Part shown: positions 18,769-30,484 of the stretch, in pieces
Layout: each line of letters begins with the position of its first letter
Numbering within the stretch: position 1 is the first letter of the stretch
Assembly (NCBI GenBank): GCA_016936555.1
Contig: JAFGXR010000099.1
Coordinates: 1 to 54,246, forward strand
DNA: 54,246 nucleotides
Origin: Spirochaetales bacterium
Lineage (GTDB): Bacteria; Spirochaetota; Spirochaetia; DSM-2461
Direction: 5' to 3'
Notes under the pieces: model-generated
Databases searched by the model: none
What the model was told of the DNA's origin: nothing
The model's input: the letters and a program-made list of their open reading frames with translations, nothing else
Position numbers and translations under genes: made by a program

Positions 18769-19662
18769 AACAGACTCTTAAAAAAGATCCGGGAATTCGG
18801 CCTGATACTCTCGTTCCCTGATGGGGCAACCCGGGCAATCCTGCCACTGACCCATGCGCTAAATAAATCTCATCTCCCCCTTGTACTCATCCCGTTCTCA
18901 GGAGAGGAGGAAAAAGACATCGTCAAAGAGGCCAATGAGAAGGAAGACCTGTTCATCGGTTCCGACTGCCCGGCATCTCCTGCTGCAATAGAAAAATCCT
19001 TTGGTTCGGGAGCTCATTTCGCCCTCTGTTCCGCTTTCGAAGATGACAGGCTACCCCGGTTGAAAGAGAGCGGACTCGATATATTTATGCGGGTCACCAG
19101 CAGAGATGAGATTGATCTGGCCGTCAGAAACGGAGCGGGGGCTCTGGTAATCAATTCGGAGACAGAAAACATCTGCGAACTGATAAACTATGCTTCTTCA
19201 CAAATAAAATACCCATTTTTTCTGGAAGGTCCATTCAAGAGTGAAATAAGCAGAAAATGGCAATTGATTCCCGATTTCATAGCCTGGATATGTCCATTCC
19301 CCTTAATTTCGCTCAGATCGGGAATCGATGAAAGAGGGACAGTCGAACGTCAGGCCTATTCCATGATCCGCAGCCTCCTCGGTATCCGTTACCGGGCCCT
19401 GATACTAAAGAGAGATTCACCGGAACGGGAACGGGCCGAATGCTTCTGCGCACTCTCGGCCATCCCCCTTCTGGACGAGGGTGAGCGGGTGTGTCTGGAA
19501 ATTGAAGTATTCGATATGGACAGAACCATTGCCCATCTGAAATGGCGCAATATCTATATGGATCCGCTGTCAGCTGAGATGAACGGCGCAACCGTCGTCT
19601 CCACGGATTTATACGAAAACTTTATGGGGTGGCCGGTCAGGCTGCTGAGCGGCCGAAATTAG
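18766..19662 (+). CDS. Degenerate KDPG-aldolase-like protein with VOC-like C-terminal domain
   Basis: A 298-residue cytoplasmic protein. Residues ~25-185 follow the TIM-barrel pattern of 2-keto-3-deoxy-6-phosphogluconate aldolase (Eda): DLFIGSDCPASPAAIEKSFG then SGAHFALCSAFEDDRLPRLK align with the [20 protein letters not shown] region of E. coli Eda. Positions of the Eda Schiff-base lysine and catalytic glutamate appear to be leucines here (about L127 and L41), so aldolase activity is doubtful. Residues ~205-298 look like a glyoxalase/VOC half (LEIEVFDMDRTIAHLKWRNI), and aldolase-VOC fusions are known in other bacteria. The ATG at 18766 has no Shine-Dalgarno but lies six bases after a -10. 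The fold call is an inference from sequence pattern. Confidence 0.55.
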   Translation: MNRLLKKIREFGLILSFPDGATRAILPLTHALNKSHLPLVLIPFSGEEEKDIVKEANEKEDLFIGSDCPASPAAIEKSFGSGAHFALCSAFEDDRLPRLKESGLDIFMRVTSRDEIDLAVRNGAGALVINSETENICELINYASSQIKYPFFLEGPFKSEISRKWQLIPDFIAWICPFPLISLRSGIDERGTVERQAYSMIRSLLGIRYRALILKRDSPERERAECFCALSAIPLLDEGERVCLEIEVFDMDRTIAHLKWRNIYMDPLSAEMNGATVVSTDLYENFMGWPVRLLSGRN

Positions 19663-19703
19663 TACCGGACTTTTTCCTGCAGGATAAGAGCTCCGCTGTC
19701 GAT

Positions 19704-19718
19704 TATAATAGTTATATG
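19704..19718 (+). promoter_or_regulatory. -10 element placed for a leaderless transcript
   Basis: A consensus TATAAT (19704-19709) lies six bases before the ATG at 19716. No convincing -35 was found, so this case is weaker than the others of its kind in the window. Confidence 0.4.
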
Positions 19719-20903
19719 AAGATTCGATTTCTCATCACGGCATTCTGTCTGGCTCTTTTTCCTCTCTATTCTCAGGAGATGAAACTTTACGCCCCTTTCC
19801 CGTCCCGTCTGGAAGCCCTTACGTCCGGCTCGGAGATCCTGCTGACCTGGAAGGATGCCCCTGATGTCGCTGAGGGAACCTATGAAATTTACAGAGGAGA
19901 CCTGCCGCTCACTGCGGACAACCTCTATCTGGCTGAAAAGATCGGTGACGTACCGGACGGAACCCAGCTATTCAGGGATCAGCCCCCGAAAGGCAAGTCC
20001 GTCTACTATGCCGTTTTCGTCAGAGATCCTTCTCAGGTTTACAAGATCTGCATCCCTTACAGGAATGTCACGACATCTCCCGTAAGCATAGAGGAGTCGG
20101 ATATTGAGGAGACGAAGAGCACGGTTATTTCCAATCTGACGGCTCAGGTCTTTGACAGCGATGTCGCCCTCTCCTACGAATCAACTCTGGCTGACAGAAA
20201 CATCATACTTTTCAGGAGCACGTCCCGGATCGATTCTTACGAGAAACTGATTAAATCGATTCTTGTCGGAGAGAAATCGGGGTCTCAGACATCGATTATC
20301 GATAACCCCATAGCCGGTCTCAATTACTACTATGCCGCCGTTGACGGGGCGCTTTACCGGTCGGGAAGCCGAAATCTTCTCTACAGCGGCAATTATACGG
20401 TCAGTCCTGTCCATATAAAATTTTCCCATGAAATAAATGAAGACAACCGCTTTATCAAATCAGCTATGCCTCTGCCTCTTCTCAAGGTTTCATCGGATCT
20501 AAAATCCGGGGAAAAACTGGAAGAACGCAAAGACCCCGAATACGATGCTGTTATCGAACCCGCAACTCTGAACAACGTCCGCAGAATGATAGAACGGGAC
20601 AGAACCATCGGGGAAAAACCGGAAAAAGCCTTTCTCGCTTACAATAAAAATATCAATTCCCTGGTAACCTCTCTGTTCGCCGGAGGGTTATGGGAGAGAT
20701 GCACCGAAGCTCTCGAACCCTACATATCCAGCCTGAATGACAGAGAAACCCGGGAACAGAGCCATTTCTACAGGGGGCAGTGCTACTATTATCTCGGCCG
20801 ATACAATGAAGCCCTTATCGAGTTGATTATGGTGGAAAAGACTTATTATCAGGAAACTGAACCATTTTTCAAAGCTATTTTCGAAGAACTGAAAAGAGAC
20901 TAA
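19716..20903 (+). CDS. Exported FN3/TPR-type protein of unknown function
   Basis: The product (395 residues) begins with a clear signal peptide (MKIRFLITAFCLALFPLYSQ) and should be periplasmic. Residues ~30-110 form a fibronectin-III-like strand pattern (EILLTWKDAPDVAEGTYEIY, SVYYAVFVRD), and a second similar unit lies at ~140-220 (NIILFRSTSRIDSYEKLIKS, LNYYYAAVDGALY). The C-terminus (~345-395) carries a TPR-like pair (HFYRGQCYYYLGRYNEALIE). It may bind another envelope protein, but no function is recognised. The ATG at 19716 is chosen over an upstream in-frame ATG/GTG because the signal peptide starts there. It has no Shine-Dalgarno sequence. Its stop abuts the convergent NlpC/MORN gene. Confidence 0.7.
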   Translation: MKIRFLITAFCLALFPLYSQEMKLYAPFPSRLEALTSGSEILLTWKDAPDVAEGTYEIYRGDLPLTADNLYLAEKIGDVPDGTQLFRDQPPKGKSVYYAVFVRDPSQVYKICIPYRNVTTSPVSIEESDIEETKSTVISNLTAQVFDSDVALSYESTLADRNIILFRSTSRIDSYEKLIKSILVGEKSGSQTSIIDNPIAGLNYYYAAVDGALYRSGSRNLLYSGNYTVSPVHIKFSHEINEDNRFIKSAMPLPLLKVSSDLKSGEKLEERKDPEYDAVIEPATLNNVRRMIERDRTIGEKPEKAFLAYNKNINSLVTSLFAGGLWERCTEALEPYISSLNDRETREQSHFYRGQCYYYLGRYNEALIELIMVEKTYYQETEPFFKAIFEELKRD

Positions 20904-21824
20904 TTAATTTCCGGAATTTTTCTTCCACTCTTCGAATCGCCTTAGTTCATCATCAGCCGCATTTCTGTCGGCATCGAGAGATTCCCGGAATAATTTCTGC
21001 TCGTTTGCAAGCCAATCATCCCATTCAGTCGGTGTTTCCAGCAGGTAATTGATGCGAGCGGAGCTTCTGTCCGTTCTTCTGTCGATTACAAAAGTACCCG
21101 ATTCATTTCTCGAAGCGCTGTAACGGCTCCCGTCGGAACGGATCAATTCACCACCCGATTCACGTCCATTGAAGAAGCTGCCCACATAAATATCACCATT
21201 ACTGTAGTGGTATTCACCTTTTCCATGAAAAAGTCCGTCTTTAAAATCCCCGATATAAAAATCGCCGTTCTTCAAGTCCATTCTCCCTTTGCCCCCGGGC
21301 TCCAGGTTCTGAAGGGCTCCGCTGTAGCTGCCTTTGCTGTATGAAAGGCCATCGGCACGGTTCTCAACCTGTCCGGTTCGGGGAAAAAGCCTTTTTACCC
21401 ATTTAAACCGTTCTTTCCAGTATTTTTCATCGAGATCCGTAAGAATGACACCCCGAGAGGGACCGGCGGAAACAGACTGGATCAGAGTATTCTGGCCGAT
21501 ATAGATTCCCACATGGGTAATTTCAGATCGGTTACTCCCCGTGGCATAAAAGACGAGATCCCCCGGAGATATGCTGTCAAGTGAGACAGTCGAACCATAC
21601 TGGGCTATAGCAGATGCACTACGGGGGAGATCGGGCAGAAAAGGTTTATAAAGATAATTTACCAGACCGCTGCAGTCGAATCCCGACGGATTGGTACCGC
21701 CATACCGATAGGGAGAACCGACAAGAGCCGAACCTCTCGCCACAATATCCCGGGCAATATCGACAGAAAAACATAAAGAGCTCCCTAAGAATACAAACAC
21801 CAGAAGGAACACTTTTTTAATCAA
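20904..21824 (-). CDS. Secreted NlpC/P60 peptidase with MORN repeats
   Basis: A 306-residue exported protein. A signal peptide (MIKKVFLLVFVFLGSSLCFS) is followed by an NlpC/P60 cysteine peptidase domain (~22-145), with the nucleophile C51 in GFDCSGLVNYLY and H104 in THVGIYIG. The third catalytic position reads Q116 rather than the more common histidine. Such enzymes cut peptidoglycan stem peptides. Residues ~165-235 are MORN-type repeats (NGDFYIGDFKDGLFHGKGEY, NGDIYVGSFFNG), then a charged helical tail. The start is TTG at 21824, 10 bases after AGGAG. It lies two bases downstream of the GH57-like gene, so the two are likely co-transcribed. Confidence 0.85.
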   Translation of the reverse strand: MIKKVFLLVFVFLGSSLCFSVDIARDIVARGSALVGSPYRYGGTNPSGFDCSGLVNYLYKPFLPDLPRSASAIAQYGSTVSLDSISPGDLVFYATGSNRSEITHVGIYIGQNTLIQSVSAGPSRGVILTDLDEKYWKERFKWVKRLFPRTGQVENRADGLSYSKGSYSGALQNLEPGGKGRMDLKNGDFYIGDFKDGLFHGKGEYHYSNGDIYVGSFFNGRESGGELIRSDGSRYSASRNESGTFVIDRRTDRSSARINYLLETPTEWDDWLANEQKLFRESLDADRNAADDELRRFEEWKKNSGN

Positions 21825-21826
21825 AT

Positions 21827-23851
21827 TCAGTTGCTCCTGTCTATCCTCAGAGAAAGGGAAACGGTCCAGACTTCATCTTTCTGAAGCGAGAACTCCCAAC
21901 GGGGCACATAGCAGGAACTCTGATAATTCTTTTCAATTTTTCCCCCTTCCCTGGAATAAGTAAAGAGCGGGAAGGTCCACATTTCAGCTGGAACGGAAAC
22001 AGTAAGGGAAATATCCGTATTATTGCCTCCGTCAAATGTCATCAGATGCTGAACAGATTCGTGGCTGAAACTGCTCTCGGGAATCTCATCTTTGAATTCA
22101 TCATGAATCCTGTACAGTTTCGGTTCTAGAGCTCCTGTTTTTCTGAAGGCAAGATTGACTTCGCTCCCGAAACAGAGCTCAGCCTTGTGGAGACTCAGAT
22201 TCTTTATAAGGTAATCGACATCGACAGAAGAACGTTTGAAGGTGAAGCGTTTCTGCACCTCTATGTTGTACTCATAACCATTCTGAACGACTGTACCCGT
22301 ATTGATATAGGTAACTTTTCGCTGTTCCCTGTTATAATCAACAGCATCATAGAGAGTATTTGTAAAAGAACCGAGCTCCGAATAATTCATCTGCCGGAAA
22401 CCTTCGACATTATCCCTCTTGTCGAAGAAATGATCGACAAAGGCATGACGGCCGTACTTATCATACCCCTCGGCTCTGATAGATTCATTATGATATGGTT
22501 CGGGATAGCGCGACATGGTATTGAGATAATTCCAGCCCGATGCAATATGATCGAACTCAAAGAGAACCGCCCCTCTGCTGTGAACGTAGGCATTGGTTAC
22601 ATGCCCCTGATAGAGAAATTCTCTTTCGCCATCCATATCGTAGTCGATTGAACTGAGCGAAGTTTTGAAAATACCCCTCTCTCGGGTTATCTTTTCCCCT
22701 TCGATAAGCGAGCTGTAAGCTTTATGACGCACATCGGCATTGTAAATGCCGCCCTGATTCCCATGCCAGAAAGCCAGATTGTTCTGACCTTTCCAGAGTT
22801 CCTCCTTGGCGGCCTTTTTCCTGTATTTATCCCCTCTTACCTGATTAGCCAGAACGCTGACATGCATCATCTTCGAATAGAGGAAATTGCTCTCTCTGTA
22901 CTTACTCAGGAACTGACGGAAAAAACCGCCGTAAATCCAGCCCGGTTCAATACCCGATTCAATAAGCTCATTTGTCAGGGTATCATATTCGATCTGCCTG
23001 TCCGCCGGTAAAACCCACTTCATAATCTCACCGTAGGAAGTACAGGGAAAATAGGCTTTATTGAAGGAGTTTCTCGTCTGGCGGACGTAACGTCCCGGGT
23101 GGACAAGCTCTATGTTTTTACGGTTATTTCTCAACTCATTGAGAAAACTTTCCAACCACTGATGATTGATAGACAGATTATGACCGCTCTCGTATCCTAT
23201 CTGCCTGCCGTTGGGAAAAATGACGACGACTTTGCCGTCGCCGCTGTTATCGCTGCAGATATCCTCGATGATCTTCCGGGGAACGATTTTTCCGAAACCG
23301 GCCATGGTACGGCGGGAAATGGGAAAAACGGTGATGGTTTTCCCCTGATCCTCTGTTATAGCCGGCATGTAGAGTTCTTCATCGCGGAACCCCGCCGCTT
23401 CGAAATGGGTATCGTCGAGAAAAGTATAATCGATTCCGCTGGAGCGGAGGACCGAGGCCAGCTGGGGTTCCCAGATCCTTCCAGGAAGCCAGCATCCCCG
23501 GGTTCTTTTGCCGAAGGATTTTCGAAGATAGGTGGTCATCATCTCTATCTGTCCCACCCTGTCCTGAGCGGGTATCATGGAGAGTACCGGCTCGTAATAC
23601 CCGCCGCCCAGCAGTTCGATCTGCCTTTTATCGATCATTTCTCCCAGAACCGTATTGAATTCCGGGTGATTTTTCTCAAACCATTCGAGCAGCGGCCCCG
23701 AGTAATAGAGGACCGCCGAGATTTCGGGAAAATTGTACAGAAGTGTCAGAAAAGGTTTATAGGCCTTCTGATAGATTTCTTCGATCTGCTCATTATCGGA
23801 GCCAGGAGAAATACTGTTATGTGTTCCGAAAATCAGTCGTACTTTTTTCAT
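21827..23851 (-). CDS. GH57-family glucanotransferase-like protein, probable pseudoenzyme
   Basis: The 674 residues align end to end with the GH57 4-alpha-glucanotransferase type: LIFGTHNSISPG, YYSGPLLEWFEKNHPEF, GGGYYEPVLSMIPAQDR, then the DUF1926-like beta-sandwich C-terminus. In the Thermococcus litoralis enzyme the nucleophile is Glu123 in WLTERVW and the acid/base is Asp214 in FHDDGEKFG (recalled from the literature). Here these motifs read CWLPGRIWEP (glycine at 124) and IFPNGRQIG (asparagine at 214), and the conserved HNHQP reads HNSIS. The fold should be intact but the family chemistry lost. No signal peptide, so cytoplasmic. A role as an alpha-glucan-binding protein is a guess. Start ATG at 23851 with only GGGG close upstream. 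Confidence 0.82.
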   Translation of the reverse strand: MKKVRLIFGTHNSISPGSDNEQIEEIYQKAYKPFLTLLYNFPEISAVLYYSGPLLEWFEKNHPEFNTVLGEMIDKRQIELLGGGYYEPVLSMIPAQDRVGQIEMMTTYLRKSFGKRTRGCWLPGRIWEPQLASVLRSSGIDYTFLDDTHFEAAGFRDEELYMPAITEDQGKTITVFPISRRTMAGFGKIVPRKIIEDICSDNSGDGKVVVIFPNGRQIGYESGHNLSINHQWLESFLNELRNNRKNIELVHPGRYVRQTRNSFNKAYFPCTSYGEIMKWVLPADRQIEYDTLTNELIESGIEPGWIYGGFFRQFLSKYRESNFLYSKMMHVSVLANQVRGDKYRKKAAKEELWKGQNNLAFWHGNQGGIYNADVRHKAYSSLIEGEKITRERGIFKTSLSSIDYDMDGEREFLYQGHVTNAYVHSRGAVLFEFDHIASGWNYLNTMSRYPEPYHNESIRAEGYDKYGRHAFVDHFFDKRDNVEGFRQMNYSELGSFTNTLYDAVDYNREQRKVTYINTGTVVQNGYEYNIEVQKRFTFKRSSVDVDYLIKNLSLHKAELCFGSEVNLAFRKTGALEPKLYRIHDEFKDEIPESSFSHESVQHLMTFDGGNNTDISLTVSVPAEMWTFPLFTYSREGGKIEKNYQSSCYVPRWEFSLQKDEVWTVSLSLRIDRSN

Positions 23852-23864
23852 TACCCCGAAATTT

Positions 23865-23897
23865 ACAAAAATGCCGGAACGGCTGGTTACCGCTCCG
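23865..23897 (-). terminator. Intrinsic terminator of the rnf operon
   Basis: Reading the minus strand, CGGAGCGG - 7-base loop - CCGTTCCG (one G-T wobble) is followed by GCATTTTTG. It lies 31 bases after the rnfB stop. Confidence 0.7.
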
Positions 23898-23928
23898 ACA
23901 TGAGAATTATACAGTTATAAACAACGTC

Positions 23929-24750
23929 CTACTTTTCATCGAGAACGATGATGCTTCCTGTCGGACACTTCTCAGCCGCATCAGCGCGACCCGGTCCCCT
24001 GTCATTATAACCTACTATCGAAAGATTATCCGTAATTTTATATCCCGCATCGGGAAATTTCTTTGCACAGATCTGACATCCGATACAGCCGACACTGCAG
24101 TTTGCCTTCGTGTCCTTGCCCTTGTCCTTCGAATTACAGGCGACAATGACATCGGCATCTTCGGGAATCATTTTTATGACACCGGTCGGACAGACGGCTA
24201 TACATTTTTCACAACCTATACATTTGTTCTTATCGACCCAGACCAGCCCCTGCTCATCGTAATCGATGGCGTCGGCGGGACAGACCTGCATACATGATCC
24301 CAGTCCGAGACAGCCGTACTGGCAGCTCTTGTCTCCACCGAAAAGTATGGACGCGGCGTTACAGTCTTTCAAACCTTTGTATCTGTAACGGGTTTCGGCC
24401 GTGCCTTCCCCCCCGCGGCAGTGAACCTGCGCCACCATTCTCGGACCGGATGTATCGACTTCCCTTTCCAGAACCTGCCCGATTCCCTCTAGGCAGGCGG
24501 CTCCGCCGGGCTTACATTTTGTTATGTCTGAATCGCTGCCGGAGGAAAGGGCTTCCGCATAGGGTTCACAGCCCGCATATCCGCAGGAACCGCAGTTCAG
24601 ACCCGGCAAATGCCCCATCAGAGCTTCGACGGTTTTATCTTTTTCCACTCTCAGTTTCTTCGCGGCAATAGCGAGCCCGAATCCGAGGGCGCTCCCTAAA
24701 AATGCCACGGAGATGAAACCGTAGAGGGTTCTCAGTATTAAATCAAGCAT
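23929..24750 (-). CDS. rnfB: Rnf electron transport complex subunit B
   Basis: RnfB is the iron-sulfur subunit that passes electrons between ferredoxin and the rest of the membrane complex. The 273-residue protein has an N-terminal membrane anchor, then the 4Fe-4S domain with GLNCGSCGYAGCEPYAEAL. Two ferredoxin-type clusters follow (CLGLGSCMQVCPADAI and CIGCEKCIAVCPTGVI). A C-terminal cysteine-rich segment, CIGCQICAKKFPDAG, suggests a further cluster. AAGGA lies just before the ATG. It is the last gene of the operon, eight bases after rnfA and followed by a terminator. Confidence 0.95.
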   Translation of the reverse strand: MLDLILRTLYGFISVAFLGSALGFGLAIAAKKLRVEKDKTVEALMGHLPGLNCGSCGYAGCEPYAEALSSGSDSDITKCKPGGAACLEGIGQVLEREVDTSGPRMVAQVHCRGGEGTAETRYRYKGLKDCNAASILFGGDKSCQYGCLGLGSCMQVCPADAIDYDEQGLVWVDKNKCIGCEKCIAVCPTGVIKMIPEDADVIVACNSKDKGKDTKANCSVGCIGCQICAKKFPDAGYKITDNLSIVGYNDRGPGRADAAEKCPTGSIIVLDEK

Positions 24751-24757
24751 ATTTTCC

Positions 24758-25348
24758 TTATCCTATGAGGTTCGCGAGCAGGGCTCTGTCAAAGGCCATG
24801 AAGGCAAGTGCCATCAGACCACCGGAAACAAAGGCGATGGGAGTCCCTTTGAGAAAGCGGGGAACATTTTCCTTGTCGAGTTTCACGCGGATGGCCGACA
24901 TCAGGAAAATGGCCAGGAGAAACCCGATTCCGCCGGCGAAGCCGGCCGTGAAGCTCTCAAGGATATTGTACTCCTCTCTTACATTAATCAGGGCGATACC
25001 CATAACGGCACAGTTTGTCGTGATGAGGGGCAGATAGATACCCAGAGCTTTGTAAAGCGCCGGTGAAAATTTCTGAACAGCCATTTCAACCAGCTGGACA
25101 AGAGACGCGATAACCAGGATAAAGGCAATCGTCTGAAGAAATTCCAGATTAAGCGGCACGAGAATCCCGTGATAGATGATCCATGTAACCAGAGAGGCCA
25201 TGGACATGACAAATGTTACAGCAAAACCCATCCCGACGGCGGAATCCGAATCCTTGGAAACACCGATAAAGGGACACAGTCCGAGGAACTGGCTCAGAAT
25301 CATATTGCTGATAAATACGTAAGTGATGATTATTCCTATATAACTCAT
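24758..25348 (-). CDS. rnfA: Rnf complex subunit A
   Basis: An integral membrane subunit of 196 residues with six hydrophobic helices. It carries the family signatures ISNMILSQFLGLCPFIGVS near the N-terminus and ITTNCAVMG mid-protein, whose cysteines hold an intramembrane iron-sulfur cluster between RnfA and RnfE in studied complexes. Ends two bases apart from rnfE upstream and eight bases before rnfB. Confidence 0.95.
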   Translation of the reverse strand: MSYIGIIITYVFISNMILSQFLGLCPFIGVSKDSDSAVGMGFAVTFVMSMASLVTWIIYHGILVPLNLEFLQTIAFILVIASLVQLVEMAVQKFSPALYKALGIYLPLITTNCAVMGIALINVREEYNILESFTAGFAGGIGFLLAIFLMSAIRVKLDKENVPRFLKGTPIAFVSGGLMALAFMAFDRALLANLIG

Positions 25349-25350
25349 AA

Positions 25351-25968
25351 TCAGTCCTCCTTCTTCTTACTTTTCAACCAGTTGAAACCGGCCATGAGAA
25401 ATCCCATGGCAAGCAGAGCTCCGGGGGACAGGCTGAAGATTCTCACCGGCGCGTCAACCAGTCCGGGGATCTCGATAACGCCGTCGAAATTGCCCATGGG
25501 GAAAAGTGTGATCGTTCCGGAGCCCAGGACCTCTCTGACCAGAGAAATGACCAGAAGACCGATCGTAAATCCGATCCCCATTCCGAGCGCGTCTACAATA
25601 GAATCCTTGACGCTGTTTTTCGAAGCATAAGCTTCGGCTCTGCCGAGGATAATACAGTTAACAACGATAAGCTTGACGAAAACTCCCAGAGAGGCGGACA
25701 GTGCCGGCACGAAAGCCTGCATAAGCATGTCGACGATGGTTACGAAGGAGGCGATGATAACGATATAGGCGGGAATATGCACTTCATCGGGAATAAAATT
25801 CTTCAGAAGCGAAACCATGATGTTTGAACCGATCAGAACGAATATAACTCCGGCACCCATACCGATGGCGTTCACCACCTGGGTGGAAACGGCCAGGGTC
25901 GGACAAAGACCGAGAGCCAGAACGAAAATAGGGTTCTCTTTGAACAAACCTTTAAGGAAATTGAACAT
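25351..25968 (-). CDS. rnfE: Rnf complex subunit E
   Basis: Membrane subunit homologous to RnfA and NqrD, 205 residues with six helices. Signature segments are FVLALGLCPTLAVSTQVVNA and KLIVVNCIILGRAEAYASKN, each with one of the cysteines expected for the shared intramembrane cluster. The start ATG shares one base with the rnfG stop codon (TGATG), indicating coupled translation. Confidence 0.95.
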   Translation of the reverse strand: MFNFLKGLFKENPIFVLALGLCPTLAVSTQVVNAIGMGAGVIFVLIGSNIMVSLLKNFIPDEVHIPAYIVIIASFVTIVDMLMQAFVPALSASLGVFVKLIVVNCIILGRAEAYASKNSVKDSIVDALGMGIGFTIGLLVISLVREVLGSGTITLFPMGNFDGVIEIPGLVDAPVRIFSLSPGALLAMGFLMAGFNWLKSKKKED

Positions 25969-26609
25969 CAGTTTTTCCCTCCCAGTAATTTGACATAATC
26001 GGAACCGAGAGCCAGAGCCCGGGAGATTCCGTTGAATGTAATGGTGCTTCCCGAAACGGCTTCCCCGTCAGCAGGGGACAGGGCCCGTTTACTGACCGGA
26101 AGAGGAGCGGCGTCGGAACCGGTGTTCAAAAACATATTGTAATAGGCCGCTTCCTCCGCTTTTTTTCCGAGTCCGGGAGTTTCATTGTTCTCCATCAGTT
26201 TGGCTTTGACAAAAGTCCCGTCCTTGAGAAATACGGCGAGAATGACCATTGTACCGCCGTATCCGCTTCCATCGAGCTGTAGAATGTATTTGAAAACTTC
26301 TCCGTTCCTGTCAACAGGATAGATAGAGGTAATAAGTTCTTTCTCGTTGAAATCCTCACCGGGGGCGATCACACCGTGAGCCGCAAGCGCAGCCGAAAGT
26401 TTTCCGTGAAGTTCATCGCTGTTGGCAGGCAGCTGAAGCTCCCCCACATGATCGCCATCAGAAAGTTCTTTGAGAGCGACTTCTTTCTCGGCACGCTTTC
26501 TTTCGACAATAACCGGCTCGGTTACGATGTTGACAACACCGAGAACGAGAGAGGCGACGGCGCAGATAATAGCGAGCCGCAGTGTCATTTGCATAAGTTT
26601 GTTATTCAC
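25968..26609 (-). CDS. rnfG: Rnf complex subunit G (covalent flavin subunit)
   Basis: RnfG has one N-terminal membrane anchor (LRLAIICAVASLVLGVVNIV) and an extracytoplasmic FMN-binding domain, 213 residues in all. The covalent flavin motif appears as SGSTIT in VSGSTITFNG (family S/T-G-A-T-x-S/T), with the last threonine expected to carry FMN; ETPGLGKKAEE upstream is also typical. The start is GTG at 26609 inside the end of rnfD (8-base overlap), with GGAG seven bases before it. Confidence 0.93.
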   Translation of the reverse strand: MNNKLMQMTLRLAIICAVASLVLGVVNIVTEPVIVERKRAEKEVALKELSDGDHVGELQLPANSDELHGKLSAALAAHGVIAPGEDFNEKELITSIYPVDRNGEVFKYILQLDGSGYGGTMVILAVFLKDGTFVKAKLMENNETPGLGKKAEEAAYYNMFLNTGSDAAPLPVSKRALSPADGEAVSGSTITFNGISRALALGSDYVKLLGGKN

Positions 26610-27636
26610 CGCTCTTCTCCTTTACCTCTCCGTATCCGAAGCGTTTGATTTTGGTGTATCTGTCGATAACGGGGACGAAAATATTCATGACAATAATGGA
26701 AAGGGATACCGCTTCGGGGAGCGAACCGAAAATCCTGATAAGGAAGGAAAGGAATCCGCACCCGATTCCGAAGATGATATTGCCCTTTGCCGTAAGCGGC
26801 GTCGTGGCCATATCGGTCGCCATGTACAGAGCTCCGAGCATCAGTCCGCCGCTCAGGATATGGAACAGAACATCTCCGGAAAAGAGTCCCGTACCCATCC
26901 GGACTCCTCCGAACATCCAGATCAGGAAAGCGAATGATCCTATATAGGCGACAGGAACATGCCAGGTAAGAATTTTCCGGGCCACAAGAACCAGAGCGCC
27001 TAAGAGAAGCAGCAGAGCCGAAACCTCGCCGATGGAACCGGGAATGTTACCGATAAAAAGGTCTTTATAAGTTACGGGAAGCCCCTCGGACTGGAGATAT
27101 TCGATCGGGCCGCTCACATTGAGAGACGTGGCGAAATATGCCGATTTCAGAGATCCCAGAGGAGTCGGTCCCGTTACCGCGTCGGCTCCTCCTGTTATGG
27201 GAAGAAGCCATTTGGTCATGGGTCCCGTCCAGGAGAAGAAGACGAAAACACGTCCCGCCAGAGCCGGGTTCATCCAGTTGGCACCCAGACCGCCGAAACT
27301 CCATTTCACGACAACGATGGCGAACAAAGAGGCGACCACGGGAATGAACAGGGGAACCTGGGGAGGCATGTTATAACCGACCAGCAGCCCCGTCAGAAAA
27401 GCCGATCCGTCATTGACTGTCACTTCCTTATTGATAAGCCCCAGCAGAGCTTCGGCGGCGACGGCGGCAATGATGGAAACGAGGATGACCACCAGGGCGG
27501 ACATTCCGAATATATAAACGCCCCAGATACCGGCGGGCACCAGGGACAATACGACAGTCCACATGATTTTGGCCGTGGAATCGGCGCTGTGGATCTGGGG
27601 ACTGCTGCTGACTGTCAGTTTTTTTGTATCAATCAT
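26602..27636 (-). CDS. rnfD: Rnf complex subunit D
   Basis: Polytopic membrane subunit of 344 residues related to NqrB, holding a covalent FMN. The flavin motif is TGPTPL (family S/T-G-A-T-P-L), with alanine replaced by proline. Other signatures are YNMPPQVPLFIPVVASLFAI and NWMNPALAGRVFVFFSW. In studied bacteria RnfD is central to coupling electron flow to ion movement. Its ATG overlaps the rnfC stop by one base. Confidence 0.94.
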   Translation of the reverse strand: MIDTKKLTVSSSPQIHSADSTAKIMWTVVLSLVPAGIWGVYIFGMSALVVILVSIIAAVAAEALLGLINKEVTVNDGSAFLTGLLVGYNMPPQVPLFIPVVASLFAIVVVKWSFGGLGANWMNPALAGRVFVFFSWTGPMTKWLLPITGGADAVTGPTPLGSLKSAYFATSLNVSGPIEYLQSEGLPVTYKDLFIGNIPGSIGEVSALLLLLGALVLVARKILTWHVPVAYIGSFAFLIWMFGGVRMGTGLFSGDVLFHILSGGLMLGALYMATDMATTPLTAKGNIIFGIGCGFLSFLIRIFGSLPEAVSLSIIVMNIFVPVIDRYTKIKRFGYGEVKEKSGE

Positions 27637-28979
27637 TATTTAGCCCCTTTTTTCTGCATCATGATGGCGCGCAGCTGGTTTTTTCCCATTCTGAATGACT
27701 GTACCAGCGGAATATGGGCCGGACAGACATAAGCGCAGGAACCGCATTCGACGCAGTCGAGAAGTCCCATGTCCTGAGCTTCCTCGAAAAGGAAATTAAG
27801 GGAGTGCTTGTTGATATCGGAAGGATTGAGTCCCATGGGACAGGCCTGAATACAGCGGCCGCAGGAAATGCAGGACGTCTGTTTTGCCGCTTTCACCTCT
27901 TTCTTCGTGAGGAAAAGGATTCCGCTGGTCCCCTTGGTAACAGGCGTATCGAGATCGAATACGCCGAATCCCATCATGGGACCGCCGGAGATCACTTTGG
28001 CAGGCTCTTCAATCAGGCCTTCGCACTCTTCCAGAAGCTGGCGGTATGTCGTTCCGATTTTAACCCGGAAGGTCTCGGGGGCTTTAACAGCTCCGCCGCT
28101 TACTGTGACGACTCTCTCGACAAGAGGTTTTTCAAAAACAAGCGCTTCGTAGACGGAATAAACTGTTTCCACGTTGAGAACCACCATTCCTATATCCAGA
28201 GGAAGTTTGCCCGAGGGAACTTCCTTTCCAGTACAGGATTTAATGATATTCTTCTCGGCTCCCTGGGGATATTTGGTTTTCAGGATATCGATCCGCACAT
28301 CGAGATCACTTTTTTCCACCGCGGCCGCCATGACTCCGGCTGCTTCGGGCTTATTGCTCTCGATAGCGAATATAATCTCTCTGGGTGAAAGGAGTTTTTT
28401 CAGAATTTTCAGACCTTCGAGAATCTCTTCAGCTTTTTCGAGGATCATGTTCTGGTCCGATGTGAGATAGGGCTCGCATTCCGCCGCGTTCACCAGGAGG
28501 TAATCGCATTTTTTCCCTTCGGGAAGTACCAGTTTGACATGAGTGGGGAATGTCGCCCCGCCCTGTCCGGCCAGTCCCATGGAGGAAATCCGTTCAATGA
28601 TCTCTTTTTCGCTGAGTCCGGTCCAGTCGCTCTGCTTCTGGGGTTTGCCCATCCGCTTGAACTCGCCGCCCAGTTCGATAACGACAGCCTGGGATTTTTT
28701 TCCATGGGGAAGATAGATCTCTTTAATCTCAACGACTTTTCCCGGTATGGAAGAATGGACAGGGACGGAGACATAACCGGTCGATTTACCGATCAGCTGC
28801 TCCTCTTCGATCGTGTCGCCGACATTTACGATACATTCAGCCGGAGCTCCGATGTGCTGAGACATGGGAATAACGGCGTGAGTGGGAAGGGAGGCGTTTC
28901 GGATAGGCCTGTTTCCCGTACCGGAAATGTTATCAGGCGGATGAACACCGCCTTTGGGAAATGTTTTAAACTTACTCAT
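27636..28979 (-). CDS. rnfC: Rnf complex subunit C (NADH dehydrogenase subunit)
   Basis: The peripheral subunit that exchanges electrons with NAD, binding FMN and two 4Fe-4S clusters. The 447 residues begin with the family start FKTFPKGGVHPPDNI and have the nucleotide/flavin region GLAGQGGATFPTHVKL and VNAAECEPYLTSD. An SLBB-like part follows, then cluster motifs CISCGRCIQACPMGLNP and CVECGSCAYVCPAHIPLV. With the other subunits it should couple ferredoxin:NAD+ electron transfer to Na+ or H+ transport, as expected in an anaerobe. Its ATG overlaps the stop of the upstream membrane-protein gene by four bases (ATGA). Confidence 0.96.
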   Translation of the reverse strand: MSKFKTFPKGGVHPPDNISGTGNRPIRNASLPTHAVIPMSQHIGAPAECIVNVGDTIEEEQLIGKSTGYVSVPVHSSIPGKVVEIKEIYLPHGKKSQAVVIELGGEFKRMGKPQKQSDWTGLSEKEIIERISSMGLAGQGGATFPTHVKLVLPEGKKCDYLLVNAAECEPYLTSDQNMILEKAEEILEGLKILKKLLSPREIIFAIESNKPEAAGVMAAAVEKSDLDVRIDILKTKYPQGAEKNIIKSCTGKEVPSGKLPLDIGMVVLNVETVYSVYEALVFEKPLVERVVTVSGGAVKAPETFRVKIGTTYRQLLEECEGLIEEPAKVISGGPMMGFGVFDLDTPVTKGTSGILFLTKKEVKAAKQTSCISCGRCIQACPMGLNPSDINKHSLNFLFEEAQDMGLLDCVECGSCAYVCPAHIPLVQSFRMGKNQLRAIMMQKKGAK

Positions 28980-30484
28980 GCTACCTGTTCATTTCTCCTT
29001 AATAACTTTTTTCGTACGCTGAACGATGTATTTAGGGTATTGTTTCTATTGCTGAAATACAACAGCAATAATATTAACATGAAATGGGAAAAATTAAGAA
29101 GTGAAAAACCACCGGAAATAGGCTGATCTGATTTTTTTTCGACAACTACAGGCCCTTCTGTAGAAAAAAGAAGGCTTGCCGGATTATCGTTTTTCAGTAG
29201 AGAAATCTGATTCCTGAACCATGTTTCGTTATAATCGGCAATAATTTCATATGTTTTCGAAACCGATACCCCCTCGGTTGTATAGACAGGATATAAGAGA
29301 GGATCCGATGGGGATGGATAGACCCAGGAGCTCCTGTAGAGAAAACCTTCCTGATAGGCTCTGTGTGTCAGATAATCAGCCGGAGAAATGACGCCGTCCT
29401 TTCCGAAAGTCTCCTGAATTCCCGAAAGCGTCCACCGCCGATCAGCCCGGGATCCCGGCACCGGCAGAAGCGCCGTCGGGGTGCCCGAATCGAAGAGGGA
29501 CAGTATGTATGTCGAGAGGATAAACAGGAAGAGCGCAACCAGACCGGGCACAGTTCTCGCAGGGGAATTTCTCTGAACCTGTGGTTTGTCCATGATTCTG
29601 ACAGGCTCAAAGAGCCGGTGCTCCGGTTTGGAAAACCGCATTTTCCGCTTATTTGACGTCTGAATCCCCTGATACTCTCTCTTTTCCTCTTTTCCGATGT
29701 ACGGAAGAAGAGAACCTGAAATTCCGAGAACAAGAAGTAGAATATACAGAAGGAATTCCCCGATGCCGGAACCCGGTTCAACAAGAAAAGCAGCAAAACC
29801 GGCGATGAAAAAAGGAAGAGTCCGCCGATGATCGAGCGAAAAGAGAGAATGAACCGCGAGAGCCGTTATAATCCCTGTGTAACCGTATAAAAAGACAAAG
29901 GGTAGCCATGCTGCCGCGCCGGTAAAAGAAAGAAACCGCCCTTCCCTGTTCAGCAGGAATAGAATGGCCGATGAGAAAATATAGAAAAGTAAGGGTAGCA
30001 AAAAACGAAAGGGTGAAAATCCGCCGATCGCCCATTTCTCCTCAGACTCACTGAAGAGTTCCCGCAAATAAAAAAACAGCAGAAAAGGGGAGAGCCCTTC
30101 TTTTTCCACATACAGGAGTTCCAGGAGCTCATCATTTAAAACTCCTTCAAAAAGACCGGACACTTTCCGGAGATAGGGATCGAATCTGGGATCATCGTCA
30201 TCGAAACGGCTGCTCACATCTCTGAGAGGAAGAGAGGCTATCTCGGGAATGTCATTATAAATGACTCTGGACTTGCTTAAAGAGATGTAGGAAAGCCCTC
30301 TGTCCTCGAGCATCTTCTCCACAGGTCCGGATTGCCCGGTTATGATCGTGTAATAGCAGTCCCAGTACTCACCTGTCCGGAGATCCCTGCCCGCTATATA
30401 AATAAAGGAAGCAACCAGACTGGCCGCCACCACAATCAATGCTCCCCGGGGCATGAAATGCCTCACTCTTCCTGTACTTACCAT
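28976..30484 (-). CDS. Polytopic membrane protein of unknown function, first gene of the rnf operon
   Basis: No family was recognised. The 502 residues show an N-terminal helix (ALIVVAASLVASFIYIAG), a ~130-residue probably extracytoplasmic domain, a cluster of four to five helices at ~155-265, and a basic cytoplasmic-looking loop. One more helix follows near 315, then a second ~120-residue domain (KTYEIIADYNETWFRNQISL) and a final helix (FMLILLLLYFSN) before a basic tail. The stop overlaps the rnfC start (ATGA), so the two should be translated together. This makes a role in Rnf assembly, insertion or regulation possible, but that is inference from position. ATG at 30484 has AAAGGA 12 bases upstream; a later in-frame ATG (MPRGAL) is possible. 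Confidence 0.75.
   Translation of the reverse strand: MVSTGRVRHFMPRGALIVVAASLVASFIYIAGRDLRTGEYWDCYYTIITGQSGPVEKMLEDRGLSYISLSKSRVIYNDIPEIASLPLRDVSSRFDDDDPRFDPYLRKVSGLFEGVLNDELLELLYVEKEGLSPFLLFFYLRELFSESEEKWAIGGFSPFRFLLPLLFYIFSSAILFLLNREGRFLSFTGAAAWLPFVFLYGYTGIITALAVHSLFSLDHRRTLPFFIAGFAAFLVEPGSGIGEFLLYILLLVLGISGSLLPYIGKEEKREYQGIQTSNKRKMRFSKPEHRLFEPVRIMDKPQVQRNSPARTVPGLVALFLFILSTYILSLFDSGTPTALLPVPGSRADRRWTLSGIQETFGKDGVISPADYLTHRAYQEGFLYRSSWVYPSPSDPLLYPVYTTEGVSVSKTYEIIADYNETWFRNQISLLKNDNPASLLFSTEGPVVVEKKSDQPISGGFSLLNFSHFMLILLLLYFSNRNNTLNTSFSVRKKLLRRNEQVA

What the first reader, a model, noticed from the sequence alone, without database searches (positions are those of the whole stretch)
21827..23851. 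GH57 protein with all key catalytic residues replaced
The protein keeps the full GH57 glucanotransferase architecture, but nucleophile Glu is Gly124, acid/base Asp is Asn214 and the second His of HNHQP is Ser13. Three independent motif losses with the rest well kept suggest selection for a non-enzymatic role, such as glycogen binding or regulation. It is next to a secreted peptidoglycan peptidase with MORN repeats, an unusual partner.
Basis: partly seen in the sequence, partly recalled or inferred. Interest (0 to 1): 0.6.

Follow-up and report, generated by a model that had tools for sequence, protein, structure and literature searches.

The report
Dead starch-enzyme relative beside Rnf pump
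Across one class of spirochaete bacteria a protein built like a starch-remodelling enzyme has lost its catalytic residues and active-site lining yet is strictly preserved directly behind the genes for the Rnf energy-conserving pump, which suggests that it was recruited as a non-enzymatic helper of that pump.

Summary
The minus-strand ORF 21827-23851 (674 aa) matches T. litoralis 4-alpha-glucanotransferase over its full length (Z 42.3, 1.9 A over 624 residues), with E123->G124, D214->N214 and H13->S13. No shifted Glu/Asp pair was found. The loss is family-wide: none of 97 homologues from the same class (Spirochaetia) keeps all of H11/H13/E123/D214; all aligned same-phylum homologues from other classes keep them. 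Of 83 positions invariant in the intact homologues, 48 fall below 50% in the Spirochaetia set. Thirteen new positions became fixed, mostly on one barrel helix and the helical bundle. dN/dS is 0.035, so this is a maintained protein. The best clue lay outside the given coordinates: the gene sits directly 3' of the rnf operon in 82 of 91 Spirochaetia loci (30 of 33 families), versus 0 of 18 intact homologues. The NlpC/MORN neighbour was seen only in this genus. The host keeps intact GH77 and GH57 enzymes elsewhere. Best reading: an Rnf-linked GH57 pseudoenzyme acting as an assembly or regulatory factor (role inferred). Inactive '4AGT-like' GH57 proteins were described in 2018; I found no report of the rnf linkage.

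The parts
21827..23851 (-). GH57-like pseudoenzyme (674 aa): barrel about 1-310, helical bundle about 311-395, C-terminal beta-sandwich about 396-674; catalytic positions S13, G124, N214
23929..24750 (-). rnfB (FeS plus ferredoxin-type clusters), directly upstream of the GH57-like gene (77-bp gap)
24758..25348 (-). rnfA (identified by its place in the operon and by conservation)
25351..25968 (-). rnfE (identified by its place in the operon and by conservation)
25968..26609 (-). rnfG (FMN_bind domain)
26602..27636 (-). rnfD (identified by its place in the operon and by conservation)
27636..28979 (-). rnfC (TIGR01945 E 3.7e-157; all eight cluster cysteines kept)
28976..30484 (-). ORF502: membrane protein without Pfam match, conserved upstream of rnfC across Spirochaetia; lies directly next to the GH57-like gene where rnf is missing (L157, L043)
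23871..23901 (-). terminator-like hairpin (13-bp stem) between rnfB and the GH57-like gene; a stem-loop at this place, with a different sequence, is seen in the same-genus relatives
20904..21824 (-). NlpC/P60 peptidase with MORN repeat, start 2 bp after the GH57-like stop; adjacency seen only in this genus
19629..20903 (+). ORF424 (weak TPR match), convergent neighbour conserved in many Spirochaetia loci

Best explanation
The protein is a GH57 4-alpha-glucanotransferase-derived pseudoenzyme. SHOWN BY SEQUENCE: from the base of the class Spirochaetia the gene is found directly behind the rnf operon; it kept its whole three-domain scaffold, lost the acid/base, nucleophile and cleft residues stepwise in different lineages, and fixed a new set of residues on the barrel helix 95-113 and the helical bundle 313-395. 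INFERRED: it works as a cytoplasmic accessory factor of the Rnf complex (assembly, stability or regulation), docking through the newly fixed helical face, possibly together with the membrane protein ORF502, rather than acting on glucan. The glucan chemistry of the cell is done by the intact GH77, GH57 branching-type and phosphorylase enzymes encoded elsewhere in the genome.
For: Catalytic loss: 0 of 97 Spirochaetia homologues keep H11+H13+E123+D214, and only 14 keep both E and D. All aligned same-phylum other-class homologues (L099-L118), the Nitrospira protein L035 and TLGT keep all four. The Spirochaetia proteins form one clade (SH-aLRT 100) with the E+D-keeping L027 branching first, and L027 is already rnf-linked (L153). 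Cleft decay and new constraint: 48 of 83 invariant positions fall below 50%, and 13 new positions are fixed although the Spirochaetia set is more divergent (mean identity 0.30 against 0.41). Maintained protein: dN/dS 0.035 overall, 0.018 in the barrel, 0.009 in the bundle. Fold kept: pLDDT 92.5, Z 42.3 to 1k1x. Linkage: at least 2 rnf genes upstream on the same strand in 82 of 91 loci (30 of 33 families; median gap 9 nt), against 0 of 18 outside the class. It persists where the adjacent rnf operon is divergent, including a 1.14-Mb reduced genome (L165). ORF502 and the GH57-like gene stay together where rnf is lost, with an rnfC remnant in L043. The genome encodes two GH77, a glycogen phosphorylase and a second GH57 with intact motifs WLPECGY and YDAELFGHWW.
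Against: No direct evidence of interaction with any Rnf subunit. Nine of 91 loci are unlinked yet the gene survives there. In this window a terminator-like hairpin lies between rnfB and the gene, so co-transcription may be partial in this genus. At least one sampled genome with a strong rnfC lacks a detectable homologue (G387, one search compared), and intact homologues also live in rnf-bearing genomes without being linked. The new-constraint patch was located by secondary structure only; coordinates could not be analysed, so its surface exposure is unproven.
Confidence: 0.5

Rival explanations
1. Glucan sensor: the dead barrel or the mutarotase-like C-terminal sandwich still binds maltodextrin or glycogen and tells the Rnf pump (or another target) about energy reserves.
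For: The scaffold, the C-terminal beta-sandwich (mutarotase-like fold) and E79/W127 are kept. The host has glycogen metabolism genes.
Against: Most cleft-lining residues are lost (H11 0.24, R182 0.10, W221 0.06, W278 0.35, N353 0.16 retention in the thinned set; TLGT numbers) and the loop after position 214 has the lowest model confidence. The gene is kept in a genome as small as 1.14 Mb (L165) with the site fully gone.
Confidence: 0.15
2. It is still an enzyme with altered chemistry, for example using E79 or another acid, or acting on a different substrate.
For: E79, W127, D403 and K534 are invariant or nearly so. Some members keep E123 and/or D214. PMC6037648 cites Pyrococcus alpha-galactosidase as a GH57 enzyme whose proton donor is unresolved.
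Against: No alternative acidic residue replaces E123/D214 consistently. The active-site neighbourhood diverges between lineages, with D214 changing state at least 21 times on the tree, unlike a new conserved active site.
Confidence: 0.08
3. Passenger gene: it is conserved for an Rnf-independent cytoplasmic function, and the gene order is merely frozen.
For: It survives in 9 loci without rnf. A terminator-like hairpin separates it from rnfB here.
Against: Linkage holds across 30 of 33 families, with overlapping or 3-nt gaps in many loci, while the genes on the far side differ between lineages. It also stays beside strongly diverged rnf operons.
Confidence: 0.22
4. Decaying pseudogene or assembly artefact.
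For: One relative has an in-frame TAG (L025) and one is broken (L074).
Against: Open reading frame in nearly all genomes; dN/dS 0.035; the same substitutions G124/N214/S13 in all four genomes of the genus.
Confidence: 0.02

Closest known systems
GH57 4-alpha-glucanotransferase (Thermococcus litoralis TLGT, PDB 1K1W/1K1X)
   Same: Full-length sequence match and fold: three domains, Z 42.3, 1.9 A over 624 residues
   Different: Nucleophile E123, acid/base D214, H13 and most cleft residues are replaced; the gene sits in an rnf locus
'4AGT-like' GH57 proteins (Martinovicova and Janecek 2018, PMC6037648: 63 bacterial sequences, length 623 in their table)
   [quoted passage not shown] bacterial only; similar length
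   Different: That paper gives no function or genomic context; its member list was not readable here, so identity of the groups is likely but unverified. The rnf linkage, cleft-wide decay and new constraint are additional
Mutarotase-fold chains of the chloroplast NDH-PSI supercomplex (9grx chain 2, 7wff chain b)
   Same: The C-terminal sandwich aligns (Z about 18): a sugar-enzyme fold inside a redox pump supercomplex
   Different: A fold shared by many mutarotases; 10-12% identity; only this domain; a precedent by analogy, not evidence of kinship

Membership tests
GH57 sequence/structure family | GH57 catalytic-domain profile and seven-stranded barrel fold | tested here: met
   PF03065 1.6e-34; Z 42.3 to 1k1x
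Active GH57 4-alpha-glucanotransferase | Catalytic nucleophile Glu (TLGT E123) | tested here: not met
   Gly124
Active GH57 4-alpha-glucanotransferase | Proton donor Asp (TLGT D214) | tested here: not met
   Asn214
Active GH57 4-alpha-glucanotransferase | First conserved region HNHQP | tested here: not met
   HNSIS
Active GH57 4-alpha-glucanotransferase | Transglycosylase activity | not testable with these tools
   Needs purified protein
[quoted passage not shown]
   Both replaced; nearest solved relative is TLGT
4AGT-like proteins (PMC6037648) | Falls in the published 4AGT-like cluster | not testable with these tools
Rnf complex subunit or accessory factor | Encoded in the rnf operon | tested here: inconclusive
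   Directly behind rnf in 82 of 91 Spirochaetia loci, often with 3-nt gaps; but in this window separated from rnfB by a terminator-like hairpin and no transcript data
Rnf complex subunit or accessory factor | Physical or functional association with Rnf | not testable with these tools

The most novel reading that the evidence does not exclude
A glycoside hydrolase was captured by the rnf operon in the ancestor of the Spirochaetia and converted into a dedicated, non-catalytic component or assembly/regulatory factor of an ion-pumping redox complex, working with a previously undescribed membrane protein (ORF502); it is part of the machinery even in reduced genomes with a non-canonical Rnf.
Probability: 0.4. 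Interest if true: 0.75.

Novelty: new variant of a known kind. Interest (0 to 1): 0.55.

Why it matters
The Rnf pump is central to energy conservation in anaerobes, and the treponemal Rnf has been proposed to be non-canonical (PMC7512555). A class-wide, rnf-linked pseudoenzyme would be a missing part of that machinery. It would also be a clear case of a carbohydrate enzyme losing its chemistry while being kept for another job, with intact relatives, intermediates (L027, L019) and fully eroded members all available for comparison.

Tried and rejected
Shifted catalytic pair: not found in 117 aligned sequences. NlpC/MORN partnership: seen only in the same genus. Pseudogene: rejected by dN/dS. Loss of the RnfC Fe-S ligands in the divergent rnf operons: rejected, all eight cysteines kept. 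Identity of ORF502: no Pfam match, no PDB sequence relative, no significant Foldseek match from a moderate model (pLDDT 72). The genome-contig scan gave only 3 loci. Literature: no paper found on rnf-linked GH57; the papers read on the NDH complex do not comment on the mutarotase-like fold. Dependence on rnf by phylogenetic profile: suggestive only, because the class genomes without the gene are mainly the about 1-Mb family f20, whose reduction confounds it.

Full report
OBSERVATION. The ORF is on the minus strand, 21827-23851, 674 aa. It carries the three Pfam domains of GH57 4-alpha-glucanotransferases and aligns with T. litoralis TLGT (1K1W) at E = 2e-78. TLGT E123, D214 and H13 are Gly124, Asn214 and Ser13. 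The motif columns align without displacement in a 117-sequence alignment, so there is no hidden Glu/Asp pair. The AlphaFold2 model (79-sequence alignment) has pLDDT 92.5 and pTM 0.92 and superposes on 1k1x with Z 42.3 and 1.9 A over 624 residues (Foldseek TM 0.87/0.93). The stretch with the lowest confidence (residues 221-230, mean pLDDT 59) lies just after Asn214.

A CLASS-WIDE PSEUDOENZYME. Homologues occur in 87 of 98 sampled relatives and in 225 of 393 genomes sampled over the phylum at E <= 1e-10. All other-class homologues in the alignment keep HNH (or HCH), E123 and D214, as do TLGT and a Nitrospira protein. None of 97 Spirochaetia homologues keeps H11, H13, E123 and D214 together; 37 lack both E and D, 46 lack one of them, and 14 keep both, always without H13. 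On the tree the Spirochaetia proteins form one clade (SH-aLRT 100); the fewest state changes are 12 (H11), 7 (H13), 10 (E123) and 21 (D214), with long branches and many open forks, so the counts are approximate. The erosion is therefore gradual and repeated, not one event.

WHAT WAS LOST AND WHAT WAS GAINED. In sets thinned for near-copies, 83 positions are invariant in the intact homologues; 48 of them are below 50% in the Spirochaetia set and only 15 remain at 80% or more. The losses include the catalytic motifs and cleft residues (D213, E216, K217, W221, R182, Y183, W278, N353). Thirteen positions became fixed anew (E103, T106, T107, R110, R116, G170, Y325, L334, D341, R344, R390, F395, N420), although the Spirochaetia set is more divergent (mean identity 0.30 against 0.41). 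By the model's secondary structure most lie on helix 95-113 or in the helical bundle and its edges. Selection is strongly purifying: dN/dS 0.035 against the nearest relative, lowest in the bundle (0.009) and barrel (0.018) (dS is 1.38, so the ratio is approximate).

GENOMIC CONTEXT. Upstream on the same strand lie rnfB, A, E, G, D, C and ORF502. In 82 of 91 Spirochaetia loci with enough upstream sequence at least two rnf genes lie upstream on the same strand, with a median ORF gap of 9 nt; in other classes this is 0 of 18. Linked loci cover 30 of 33 family-level groups. The gene stays beside strongly diverged rnf operons, including that of a 1.14-Mb genome (L165), and all RnfC proteins checked keep their eight cluster cysteines. 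In L157 and L043 the rnf genes are missing but ORF502 and the GH57-like gene remain adjacent; L043 keeps a short rnfC remnant between them. The earliest-branching member, L027, is already linked while keeping E123 and D214, so linkage probably came before the loss of catalysis. The NlpC/MORN gene is adjacent only in the same genus.

CAVEATS. In this window a 13-bp terminator-like hairpin lies in the 77-bp gap after rnfB, and a stem-loop of different sequence sits there in the same-genus relatives, so the gene may be partly uncoupled in expression here. Nine loci are unlinked. At least one sampled genome has a strong rnfC but no detected homologue (G387). Annotation of rnfA, rnfE and rnfD in the window rests on operon position and conservation.

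METABOLIC CONTEXT. The genome encodes two GH77 4-alpha-glucanotransferases, a glycogen phosphorylase and a second GH57 with intact catalytic motifs (L002), so glucan remodelling does not need this protein.

MECHANISM. Shown: fold kept (predicted), catalytic site lost, new residues fixed, gene maintained and rnf-linked. Inferred: a cytoplasmic accessory (assembly, stability or regulatory) factor of Rnf, possibly with ORF502, docking through the newly fixed helical face. The C-terminal sandwich has the mutarotase-like fold, also seen in chains of the chloroplast NDH-PSI supercomplex (9grx chain 2, 7wff chain b); this is only an analogy.

KNOWN OR NEW. GH57 'like' proteins without catalytic residues, including 63 bacterial 4AGT-like sequences, were defined by Martinovicova and Janecek 2018 (PMC6037648), and the authors left their detailed analysis for elsewhere. 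A non-canonical Rnf has been proposed for Treponema pallidum (PMC7512555). No paper in the held library was found that links the two; most subscription papers are not held.

Noticed in passing
window 28976-30484 (-); L157, L043, alignment A2: ORF502: membrane protein family of about 500 aa with no Pfam, PDB or fold match, conserved upstream of rnfC across Spirochaetia (invariant D98, P99, F112, H289).
   Followed up: partly
L043 2066-2209 (G064:C278): Short rnfC remnant between ORF502 and the GH57-like gene: the rnf operon seems to have been deleted in place while its two outer neighbours stayed.
   Followed up: partly
window 23871-23901 (-); L139, L033, L034: Stem-loop between rnfB and the GH57-like gene in all four same-genus genomes, with differing stem sequences; a clear T tract only in two of them.
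   Followed up: partly
L165, L121, L125, L137, L166-L173: Several Spirochaetia lineages have a diverged rnf operon next to the GH57-like gene, and several of these genomes also carry a high-scoring rnfC elsewhere, suggesting two Rnf systems.
   Followed up: no
window 19629-20903 (+): ORF424 (weak TPR match) is a convergent neighbour conserved in many Spirochaetia loci, also in loci without rnf.
   Followed up: no
family f20 genomes: About 1-Mb genomes with no GH57-like gene keep only a weak RnfC-profile match (E about 1e-20 to 1e-29); its nature was not examined.
   Followed up: no
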